64,000 bases of DNA from Denitrovibrio sp. (GTDB lineage: Bacteria > Chrysiogenota > Deferribacteres > Deferribacterales > Geovibrionaceae), in contig PKTN01000005.1 of the NCBI GenBank assembly GCA_002869185.1, positions 124,001 through 188,000 of the forward strand, written 5' to 3'. Shown here one piece after another: positions 22,736-36,637 of the stretch (its first letter is position 1; every line of letters starts with the position of its first letter). A model generated the notes under the pieces. The model searched no databases. It had not been told where the DNA came from and saw only the letters and a program-made list of their open reading frames with translations. Position numbers and translations under genes: made by a program.

Positions 22736-25700
22736 ATGAGCAAAAGCAACGATTTTGTACATCTTCATTTACATACACAATACTCGCTACTAGACGGTGC
22801 TGTCCTAGTTGGCGACCTGATGGAAAAGATAAAAAAGACTGGCATGACTCCTATGGTTGGGATATCTGACCACGGAACAATGCACGGTATAGTCGATTTT
22901 TATCGTCAGGCTCTCGCAAACGATATTAAGCCTATCCTTGGTTGTGAAGTATATGTCGCCCCAGACAATCGCTTCAACACTAGCTACGAACGTGGACAAG
23001 ACAAGAACCACCACCTTGTTTTACAAGCAGAGAGTAACAAAGGTTTATCAAACCTACAAAAGTTAGTCTCCCGTGCTCAGTTCGAGGGTTTCCACTATAA
23101 ACCAAGAATCGACAAAGAACTTCTAGCTGAATATTCAGAAGGAATTATTGGGCTTTCAGCTTGTCTCGCAGGTGAAGTACCGCGTAAACTCATGCGCGAA
23201 CAATACGACGAGGCTGTAATTGCTGCTCACGAGTACCGCGATATCCTAGGCAAGGACAACTTCTTTTTAGAAATACAAGAAAACGGTATTGAAGAGCAGT
23301 TGATGGTAAACAGGAATCTCATTAAAATGTCTCGTGAATCTGGCATCCCTCTGGTTGCGACAAACGACTGTCACTACCTAAACAAAGGGGATCACCTCTC
23401 CCATGAGATACTTATATGCATACAAACCCAATCAACAATAAATAGCCCTAATAGATTCGAGATACACTCTGATCAACTATGGGTCAAAACTGGCGAAGAG
23501 ATGTGGAGAGCTTTTGGTGAAGTACCAGATGCACTAACAAACACAGTAGAAATTGCGAATAGATGTAGTACTAATATAGAATTCGGTAACCTACACCTCC
23601 CTGACTATGACGTGCCAGAGGGCTACACAATTGAGAGTTACCTGCTCCACCTCGCAAGGAAAGGTCTGCACGAAAAGCTTGCTAAAGTACCAGCGGAAAA
23701 ACACGAAAACTATTACAAAAGACTAGATGATGAGATGGCTGTCATCTGTGGAAAAAACTTCGCAGGTTACTTCCTCATTGTTTGGGACTTTATGAATTAC
23801 TCTCGCAGAGTAGGTATCCCAGTTGGACCTGGGCGTGGTTCTGGTGCTGGCTCTATTGTCGCATATACTCTAGGAATCACAGACCTTGATCCACTCGAAT
23901 TCAATCTCCTCTTTGAAAGATTTCTCAATCCTGAAAGATCGTCCATGCCCGATTTTGATATCGACTTTTGTGTTCGTGGACGTGAGCAGGTTATTAAATA
24001 TGTACGTGAAAAATATGGTGACGACAGAGTTTCTATGATCATTACCTTTGGTAAGCTCCAAGGTAGGTCTACCGTCCGTGACGTTGGTAGAGTCCTTGAG
24101 GTTCCATTGCCGATAGTTGATAAGCTAGCTAAAGCTATCCCACCAGACCCAGGGATGACACTCCGCAAAGCACTGAAAAAGGATGACGAACTTAAGAAAG
24201 TTTTCCAAGCAGTTGATGGTGGTGAAACTATACTGAACCATGCCGTTAAGCTTGAGGGCTTGATTCGTAACACAGGTATGCACGCTGCTGGTGTTATTAT
24301 CGCTGACAAGCCTCTAAATGAATACGTGCCTCTGTCCAGAGGTCAAAACAATGAAGTTATATGCCAGTTTGAAAAAGACACGGCAGAAAGTGTTGGTCTT
24401 GTTAAGTTCGACTTCCTCGGACTAAACAACCTCACTATCATCGATGAAGCTGTCAAACAGATCAAAAAGAACAGAGGGGAAGACCTAGATATTTCAAATA
24501 TCCCTCTTGATAATAAAGAAGTCTTCGAACTACTCAGCAGAGGTGACGCTACAGGTGTCTTCCAGCTAGAGAGTTCGGGCATGAAAAACCTCCTCAGAAA
24601 GCTTAAACCTGAGTGTTTCGAAGATATTATTGCGCTTGTAGCTCTATACCGTCCAGGTCCTATGGAATCAGGGATGCTTGATTCCTTCGTAAAAAGGAAA
24701 TACGGAGAAGAGGCGATAGATTTCATTTTTCCTGATCTCGAAGAGATACTTAAAGAGACCAGAGGGGTTGTTATATACCAAGAGCAAGTTATGCAGATCG
24801 CCCAGATCATCGGTGGATATTCGCTCGGTTCTGCGGACAACCTCCGTCGAGCTATGGGTAAAAAGAAAGAATCCGAGATGGCACGTCAAAAAGAGTTCTT
24901 CCTATATGGCGATGGCAAAACTATCCCCGGTGCAAAAGAGCGTGGCTACGACATGGTCAAGGCGGAAGATTTATTTGATAAGCTGGCGAAATTTGCTGGA
25001 TACGGGTTCAACAAATCTCACTCAGCAGCCTATGCACTCATTTCTTATCAAACAGCTTACCTTAAAGCTCTTTACCCTGTTGAGTATATGGCTGCTATCC
25101 TCTCATGTGAGATAGATAAGGGAGAAAAGATCGTTACATTCACCGAAGAGTGTAAATCTATGGGGATCGAAGTCCTCCCACCTAACGTAAATAAATCTTG
25201 AACTTCATTTGAAATTGAAGGGACATCAATCCACTTCGGACTCGGCGCTATCAAAGGTGTTGGCTGTGCGGCTATCGACTCTGCACTTGCTGAACGCACC
25301 GAAAATGGCGAGTTCAAACATATATATGACTTTTGCGAAAGAGTAGATCTTCGCGCTTGTAATAGGCGAGTACTAGAAGCACTAGTGAAGGCTGGTGCAT
25401 TCGACTGTATGGGTAAAAACCGTAGACAACACCTACAGGTGCTAGATCAAGCTCTAGAAGAGGGTCAAAGAAAACAAAAGATGAAGAATCAGGGAATTAT
25501 CTCCATTGAGGCGTTCCTTATGGATGATGATGAAGAGGAAGAAGAATTCTTTTATCCTGATGTGGAAGAAATGCCAGAGAATGAGCTCCTTAAAATGGAG
25601 AAAGAGGTTCTCGATTTTTATATCTCTAACCACCCACTAGCTATATATAACAGTATCCTAAAGACCTTCACCATACCACTTGGTGAAACCCAAGCTCCAG

Positions 25701-26266
25701 ATAGTGAGGGGGACGTCGTTGTTGGTGGTCTAGTGAAAAACGTTAAGCGAATAGTCACAAAGAAGAAGGGCGACAAGATGGCTTTTGTAAACCTTGAGGA
25801 CATGGACTCAGAGGTTGAGGTTGTTGTCTTCCCTAGAACTTTTGAAGCGTATAATAGACACCTCGAAAATGACAAGATAGTCATTATCGCTGGTAAGATA
25901 GACAAAAAAGAGGACAGCTCGGTCATTATCGCTGATAAAATTTTTGACGTAACCGAGGCTATGGAAATGCTCACCAAGCACGTCACAATCAACCTATCAT
26001 CGGTAGGTATGACAGCAGAAATGATAAGCAAGATAAAGACATTAATAGGGACTCATCACGGTGAAGTTCCAGTTAAACTTAGGCTAGAGCGACCTAAAGC
26101 TTTTGCCGCATATATTCAGACTGGTCAGGACTTTTGTATAAAACCCGGCTATGATTTTTTCAACGAGATAGACAATCTACTCGGCAAAGACAGGTACGAG
26201 ATTTCGTCAAAACCGTATGTACATGAAGAGCGTAAGAAACGCTACCAAAGCAACAAATCAGCGTGA
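22736..26266 (+). pseudogene. dnaE: DNA polymerase III alpha subunit, interrupted by an in-frame TGA
   Basis: Replicative polymerase catalytic subunit, 1176 codons in one frame with a single TGA at 25199-25201 (codon 822). Upstream of the stop are the PHP domain (FVHLHLHTQYSLLDG), the palm with PDFDIDF and the GFNKSHSAAYA motif. The sequence resumes without any gap (TSFEIEGTSIHFGLGAIKGVG region, then helix-hairpin-helix and an OB-fold). Total length is normal for DnaE1. The affected codon lies in the NVNKS-x-TSFEIEG segment, a loop just after PPNVN. The gene's own terminator is TGA (26264). Cause unresolved: sequencing error, mutation or readthrough. Labelled pseudogene only because the frame is broken; the gene is probably needed for life. 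Confidence 0.9.
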
Positions 26267-34313: not shown

Positions 34314-34835
34314 ATGATACTTCAAGTTAAAACATTTCCTGACAAGGTTCTTCGTATTAAAGCTGAACCAGTTACTAACATAGATGACAGTCTTAATAAA
34401 CTACTCGACGATATGGTAGACACTATGCACGAGAGTAAAGGCGTTGGCTTGGCTGCGCCTCAGGTCGGAGTCAGTAAGCGTGTTATTGTTGTTGATACTT
34501 CTGTGGGTGAAGACAGTTAGATGATATATAAGCTTATTAACCCTGAAATCATTTCTGAAGCTGGAGAGCAGCTCGGAGAAGAGGGTTGCCTAAGTGTCCC
34601 TGGTGAATACGAAAATGTTAGACGTGCTGATCAGGTTACTCTTAAAGCAATGAATTTAGATGGTGATACTTATACAATAGAAGCTGAAGGCTTTCTTGCT
34701 AGGGTTTTCCAGCATGAAATCGATCACCTTAACGGTATACTTTTCATTGATAAGCTACCTTCATACAAGAAAGACACACTTAAAAAATCTATTAAAAGAC
34801 GCATTCAAGAGGGAGACTATACGGTCACTGGCTAG
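34314..34835 (+). pseudogene. def: Peptide deformylase, interrupted by an in-frame TAG
   Basis: Removes the formyl group from nascent proteins; normally essential. The full frame is 173 residues with a single TAG at 34518-34520 (codon 69). All three active-site motifs are present: GVGLAAPQVG before the stop, EEGCLSVPG and QHEIDHLNG after it. The sequence reads VGEDS-stop-MIYKLINPEI, which lines up with the family without a gap, in a surface loop. TAG is a normal stop elsewhere here (thiD, HNH, ssb). GGAGG precedes the ATG. An ATG directly follows the TAG, so a split two-piece enzyme is conceivable but unlikely. Labelled pseudogene because the frame is broken. Confidence 0.9.
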
Positions 34836-35962: not shown

Positions 35963-36637
35963 ATGCGTTTTATACTCGTTTCTCTGCTGCTGCTTTTAAG
36001 CACTAGTGCTATGGCGGCAGACAAATTGATAGTCTTAGACTCTATAACTGTATCTAAATCAGCTAAACCAGACATAATGCACTAGAACATATCAGTTTCT
36101 GTAAAGGGCTCAAGCTTCTCTCAAGCATCAGAATTCATGGAAGAATATGTCAATATTTTCAATAAATACAGTAAGATATGTACTTCCAATAGCTACTCAG
36201 TCTCTCCGGAGTATGTTTACAATAATAATAAACGAGAGATCATAGGTTACAAATCTTATATGAATATACCTTGTCAGTTTAAGTCTATGAAACTGTTTAA
36301 TGAGCTATTGTCCTCTATTACTTCTGATTCTAACCCTATCAAAGCTGACATTATATTGTCTTCTGTAAATTGGGTTATAAGTAGTGAGCTACAAAGCAGC
36401 CTTAACTCACAGCTTAAAATTGATGCTATTAAACAAGCTGGTGTTACTGCTAAACAAATGGGCGAATCTTTGGGTAGTGAGTGCTCTATCCTTAAAGTCT
36501 CTTTCCTTAACGGTGTTTATTCACCCTCTCAGCCTTTGTTTGAGTCTGCTAAACTGGCTAGTGTAAACGTTTCACAACCTAATCAGTCTGACAAATCAGT
36601 GTCTATCACTGCTAAGTATAAGCTTAAATGTTTTTAG
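35963..36637 (+). pseudogene. SIMPL-domain (DUF541) periplasmic protein, in-frame TAG
   Basis: Frame of 224 codons with a signal peptide (MRFILVSLLLLLSTSAMAA) and a SIMPL/DUF541-like fold: ISVSVKGSSFSQASEF near the start and SSVNWVISSEL...DAIKQAG with AKQMGESLG later. A TAG at 36083-36085 (codon 41) interrupts it in MH-stop-NISVSV, and the reading frame continues unchanged for 184 codons. No suitable restart exists before 36137. Non-essential, so a real null mutation is possible here. Downstream is a bidirectional terminator. Confidence 0.75.

What the first reader, a model, noticed from the sequence alone, without database searches (positions are those of the whole stretch)
25199..25201. In-frame TGA inside dnaE
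The DnaE frame runs on unchanged for 355 codons past the TGA, with family sequence on both sides (NVNKS before, TSFEIEG after). dnaE is essential and a truncated 821-residue protein would lack the end of the polymerase domain region and the OB-fold. A one-base change (from TGG, TTA, TCA, TGC or TGT) explains it. MnmH shows selenium use, so Sec readthrough was considered, but no SECIS-like stem was convincing and a Sec in this loop has no rationale.
Basis: partly seen in the sequence, partly recalled or inferred. Interest (0 to 1): 0.7.

Follow-up and report, generated by a model that had tools for sequence, protein, structure and literature searches.

The report
Sequence error in DNA polymerase gene
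The stop codon in the middle of this bacterium's main DNA polymerase gene is real in the deposited sequence but is almost certainly not in the living cell: it is one of roughly a hundred similar G-to-T-type stop codons scattered through this draft genome, so it points to flawed sequence data and not to new biology.

Summary
The dnaE frame 22736-26266 (+) is interrupted once, by TGA at 25199-25201 (codon 822), and both sides are good DnaE under purifying selection. It is the only dnaE found in the 2.78-Mb assembly, and no stop lies at this site in the other DnaE genes examined. Selenocysteine is unlikely: the genome has tRNA-Sec, SelB and a Sec-type SelD, but the column is not a Cys column and no SECIS-like hairpin follows. 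The decisive evidence is genome-wide. A sample of about 430 kb holds 16-20 in-frame stops (TAA, TAG and TGA) inside conserved genes, among them def, lepB, folD, dnaK, uvrB, tilS and selD. Nearly all fit one G:C>T:A transversion (12 of 13 informative sites; p = 3e-5). Radical missense changes of that class occur at about the same rate, so selection has not acted on them. The sister draft genome G001 shows the same signature; the closed genome of Denitrovibrio acetiphilus and family controls do not. Most likely this is a consensus error from oxidised or damaged DNA.

The parts
22736..25198 (+). dnaE, part before the stop (821 codons: PHP, pol3 alpha, most of the fingers)
   Evidence: ORF; Pfam; tblastn
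25199..25201 (+). in-frame TGA, codon 822 of dnaE; relatives mostly have Gly (GGN) here
   Evidence: sequence; relatives' codons
25202..26266 (+). dnaE, part after the stop (354 sense codons and the final TGA: rest of HHH_6, OB-fold, C-terminal region)
   Evidence: purifying selection as in intact pairs
34314..34832 (+). def-like gene (peptide deformylase by sequence, from own knowledge) with in-frame TAG at 34518-34520; intact in six relatives
36083..36085 (+). in-frame TAG in a secreted-protein gene that starts near 35963; five relatives have Ser here

Best explanation
The TGA is a wrong base in the deposited consensus. The organism's dnaE most likely has a sense codon there, probably GGA (Gly), and makes a full-length alpha subunit. 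It is one of roughly 100-130 in-frame stops in this draft genome, produced by a load of mostly G:C>T:A errors of about 1-2 per 1,000 G:C pairs. That class of error is what oxidised guanine (8-oxoG), read as T, gives. Shown here: the stop itself, the genome-wide set of stops, the G:C>T:A bias among them, equal rates of nonsense and radical missense changes of this class, hits in several normally essential genes, and absence of the pattern in the closed genome of the genus. Inferred: that the cause lies in the DNA sample, sequencing or assembly, and that oxidised guanine is the chemistry.
For: Relatives' codons at this site: Gly in six of the seven nearest, Asp in one, and no stop in any DnaE examined. 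Own genome: 16-20 single in-frame stops in about 430 kb by a codon-model scan and by orthologues. They use all three stop codons and hit genes that match def, lepB, folD, dnaK, uvrB, tilS, fabH, an ABC Walker-A serine, an MCP hairpin glutamate, and selD. Of 13 sites where relatives agree wholly or by majority, 12 need only one G>T or C>A change; 35% is expected for random single-base nonsense, p = 3e-5 (8 of 9 unanimous sites, p = 0.0014). At residues invariant in at least four relatives, G:C>T:A nonsense occurs at 1.1e-3 and radical missense at 1.2e-3 per opportunity, against 0 and 0.2-0.5e-3 in G002, G005 and G007. Own against these pooled controls p = 0.002. Sister draft G001 shows it more strongly (21 radical plus 1 nonsense, p = 8e-5 against G002). 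Stops lie in 2 of about 42 full-length ABC domains of this genome and in none of 126 matches in G002 and G005.
Against: No reads were available, so coverage and read orientation could not be seen. Long contigs (up to 847 kb) are not typical of very low coverage, so how damaged bases reached the consensus is unexplained. The missense excess in the own genome against G002 alone is weak (p = 0.066). One confirmed stop (a molybdopterin oxidoreductase, Tyr in relatives) does not fit G:C>T:A. A few sites are ambiguous because the column varies.
Confidence: 0.87

Rival explanations
1. The stops are real mutations in the sampled cells. A lineage without 8-oxoG repair, or a damaged or dying population, has accumulated G:C>T:A changes, and dnaE is a genuine recent nonsense allele.
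For: The G:C>T:A bias is what loss of MutM/MutY repair gives. No MutM match was found in any family member tested and no MutY match exceeded the curated cut-off.
Against: The repair genes are equally absent or below cut-off in G002, G005 and G007, which lack the burden. Several normally essential single-copy genes are stopped at once, and nonsense is not rarer than missense, which a growing population would not show.
Confidence: 0.08
2. Selenocysteine insertion: the TGA is read as Sec by SelB and tRNA-Sec.
For: tRNA-Sec, SelB and a SelD with a Sec-type TGA are present. Two DnaE of the same order have Cys in this column.
Against: The column is highly variable (G, D, E, I, Y, C, F, S and others) with no Cys in the nearest relatives. 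The downstream RNA folds no better than shuffles (z = -0.65) and its hairpin loop ACAUCA has no G, whereas bacterial SECIS elements have a small apical loop with a conserved guanosine (PMC1088965). TAA and TAG stops occur in the same way elsewhere.
Confidence: 0.02
3. Natural stop-codon readthrough or a changed code lets the cell make full-length proteins from genes with in-frame stops.
For: Many conserved genes are interrupted yet keep family sequence after the stop.
Against: All three stop codons are involved and they stand for Glu, Ser and Gly in a way one base-change class explains. Radical missense changes of the same class are raised too, which readthrough does not predict. The closed genome of the genus lacks them.
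Confidence: 0.02
4. A two-piece DnaE: an 821-residue catalytic part and a separately started C-terminal part.
For: A GTG-started ORF of 293 codons lies downstream at 25385.
Against: No ATG, GTG or TTG start occurs in frame between the TGA and 25385, so 61 conserved residues would be lost. The shortest solved DnaE catalytic construct listed has 910 residues, beyond this point. No relative is split at this site.
Confidence: 0.01

Closest known systems
DnaE, bacterial DNA polymerase III alpha subunit (E. coli 5fku chain A; Denitrovibrio acetiphilus orthologue in G002)
   Same: Same domain order, and about 85% identity to the genus mates over the whole read-through length
   Different: One in-frame TGA at codon 822 in the deposited sequence
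8-oxoguanine sequencing artefact (G>T / C>A errors from DNA oxidised outside the cell; PMC12390751)
   Same: G:C>T:A class, spread over the genome, blind to the effect on proteins
   Different: Here it would sit in an assembled consensus, not in low-frequency variant calls; read-orientation bias cannot be tested
Bacterial selenoproteins (for example SelD of this same genome)
   Same: In-frame TGA in an organism with Sec machinery
   Different: No Cys/Sec column, no redox site and no SECIS-like loop in dnaE

Membership tests
DnaE (DNA polymerase III alpha) | PHP, pol3 alpha, finger, HHH and OB domains in order | tested here: met
   Pfam on the read-through protein
DnaE (DNA polymerase III alpha) | Single uninterrupted reading frame | tested here: not met
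   TGA at 25199-25201; uninterrupted in the nearest relatives
Selenoprotein with in-frame Sec TGA | Sec machinery in the genome | tested here: met
   tRNA-Sec, SelB, SelD with Sec-type TGA
Selenoprotein with in-frame Sec TGA | Cys in most homologues at the TGA column | tested here: not met
   Gly or Asp in the nearest relatives; Cys in only 3 of about 109 DnaE
Selenoprotein with in-frame Sec TGA | Hairpin directly downstream with G in a small apical loop | tested here: not met
   Folding z = -0.65, loop ACAUCA. The known SelD TGA of a relative also folds unremarkably, so weak folding alone is not decisive
Reassigned TGA code (NCBI tables 4 or 25) | Only TGA, not TAA or TAG, interrupts conserved genes | tested here: not met
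   TAA and TAG interrupt more genes than TGA
Oxidised-guanine (G:C>T:A) sequence error | Excess of G>T and C>A changes over other classes | tested here: met
   12 of 13 nonsense sites; 9 of 25 single-step radical changes against 3 of 12 in G002
Oxidised-guanine (G:C>T:A) sequence error | No purging of harmful changes | tested here: met
   Nonsense 1.1e-3 and radical missense 1.2e-3 per opportunity; several normally essential genes hit
Oxidised-guanine (G:C>T:A) sequence error | Read-orientation bias of the changed base | not testable with these tools
   Reads not available

The most novel reading that the evidence does not exclude
The stops are in the living cells, and this Denitrovibrio clade tolerates about a hundred in-frame TAA, TAG and TGA codons in housekeeping genes through general stop-codon suppression.
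Probability: 0.02. Interest if true: 0.9.

Novelty: not a real feature. Interest (0 to 1): 0.15.

Why it matters
It removes a tempting claim (recoding or a split essential polymerase) and replaces it with a testable data-quality one. This draft genome, and its sister G001, seem to carry about one wrong base per 500-1,000 G:C pairs, enough to break on the order of a hundred genes. Pseudogene counts, selenoprotein searches, code-change screens and dN/dS work that use these genomes would be misled. The simple check used here, comparing rates of nonsense and radical missense by base-change class at invariant residues, would flag other such genomes.

Tried and rejected
Rfam scan of the window: only one tRNA. 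SECIS fold of the region after the TGA: nothing better than shuffles. Own-lineage mutator through MutY or MutM loss: both are absent or below cut-off in clean relatives too. First spectrum test on the window alone, with all positions pooled: no G>T excess visible; only radical changes at invariant residues, on a larger set, showed it. rpoB as a yardstick: missing from this assembly. Frameshifts: none found in the window against G001 and G002. Named-genome scan for near relatives: returned only distant DnaE. Papers on Denitrovibrio drafts gave no source for this assembly.

Full report
What is there. The dnaE frame on the + strand starts at 22736 and meets TGA at 25199-25201, codon 822. Read through, it gives a 1,176-residue DnaE that ends at TGA 26264-26266. 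Pfam puts PHP, DNA_pol3_alpha and most of the fingers before the stop, and the rest of HHH_6, the OB-fold and the C-terminal region after it. Aligned to E. coli alpha, codon 822 corresponds to about residue 820, and the shortest solved catalytic construct listed has 910 residues, so an 821-residue product should not work. No ATG, GTG or TTG start lies in frame between the stop and 25385. Both parts are under purifying selection to the same degree as in intact pairs: pN/pS downstream is 0.138/0.849 (own with G002) against 0.124/0.809 (G001 with G002). The genome search found one dnaE only.

Who it is. The window therefore belongs to a Denitrovibrio species, known here from a draft of 13 contigs, 92.8% complete. 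rpoB is missing from that draft.

The codon in relatives. Among the seven nearest relatives the codon is Gly six times (GGC, GGA, GGT) and Asp once. Further out the column takes almost any residue. None of the DnaE examined has a stop there.

Selenocysteine and other recoding. The genome can make selenoproteins: tRNA-Sec, SelB, and a SelD with TGA at its Sec position. But the dnaE column is not a Cys column, and the RNA after the TGA folds no better than shuffles, with loop ACAUCA. Bacterial SECIS elements have a small apical loop holding a guanosine (PMC1088965). A caution: the SelD TGA of a relative (G007) did not stand out in the same fold test either, so the column pattern carries more weight than the fold.

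The genome-wide picture. A codon-model scan of 410 kb of this genome found many single stops with coding sequence on both sides and no gene start after them. Comparison with orthologues confirmed stops in dnaE (TGA), def-like (TAG, 34518), a secreted protein (TAG, 36083), an MCP, uvrB, lepB, folD, dnaK, fabH, serA, tilS, an oligopeptide-type and a zinc-type ABC ATPase, an ABC permease, a molybdopterin enzyme and others. SelD also has an extra TAA. Gene names here follow sequence similarity and own knowledge of the families. In supported genes the own genome has 7 stops in 23,787 codons (one of them near a C-terminus) and G001 has 6 in 24,612. In the family controls the few listed lie within about 25 residues of a gene end. 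Those reference proteins came from G002, so G002 could not show stops in that test. An independent test can: none of 126 ABC domain matches in G002 and G005 has a stop, against 2 of about 42 full-length ones here. Extrapolated, this draft has about 100-130 such stops.

The signature. In relatives the stopped codons are Glu, Ser or Gly almost throughout. These are the residues from which one G>T or C>A change makes a stop. Of 13 sites with a clear majority residue, 12 fit; random single-base nonsense would give 35%, p = 3e-5, and 8 of 9 with the unanimous sites only, p = 0.0014. At residues invariant in at least four relatives the own genome has G:C>T:A nonsense at 1.1e-3 and radical missense at 1.2e-3 per opportunity; G002, G005 and G007 have no nonsense and 0.2-0.5e-3 radical missense. 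Changes needing more than one step, a measure of natural divergence, are not raised (15 against 17 in G002). Own against pooled controls gives p = 0.002, but against G002 alone p = 0.066, so the missense part is supportive and not strong by itself. G001 shows the same more clearly (p = 8e-5 against G002).

What it means. Nonsense and missense of one class at equal rates, in several normally essential single-copy genes at once, means selection has not seen these changes. They are most likely not in living cells. A repair-defect mutator is not favoured: MutM and MutY are equally absent or below cut-off in the clean relatives. Oxidised guanine is known to give G>T and C>A errors during library preparation (PMC12390751), and that is the likeliest chemistry, though not shown here. 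How such errors reached the consensus of a draft with contigs up to 847 kb is open.

Verdict. As biology the TGA is not a real feature. The useful result is that this genome and G001 should be treated as error-laden.

Noticed in passing
34518-34520 (def-like gene 34314-34832): Second in-frame stop (TAG) in a conserved gene of the window, intact in six relatives.
   Followed up: yes
36083-36085: Third in-frame stop (TAG) in a secreted-protein gene; five relatives have Ser.
   Followed up: yes
L202 (G000:C3:238400-239317, minus strand): SelD has a Sec-type TGA near its start and a further in-frame TAA later (DDPEVKLGF*ITGK).
   Followed up: partly
G001 stretches L117-L120, L153, L156, L182, L187, L193: The sister draft genome G001 carries the same G:C>T:A pattern, more strongly in missense (6 Asp>Tyr, 6 Gly>Cys at invariant residues) with stops in thiD-, PBP- and nusA-like genes.
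   Followed up: partly
G025:C1:888142-890928: A relative of another family has a second, shorter DnaE (about 940 residues, 61% identical over residues 5-932 of the query) beside a full-length one.
   Followed up: no
Deferribacterales relatives G000-G015: MutM is missing from nearly all and no MutY match passes the curated cut-off; a different 8-oxoG repair route may be used in this group.
   Followed up: no
G000 assembly, C1 start: rpoB is absent from this draft; contig C1 begins at an EF-Tu-like gene, so the stretch between two tuf copies is probably unassembled.
   Followed up: no
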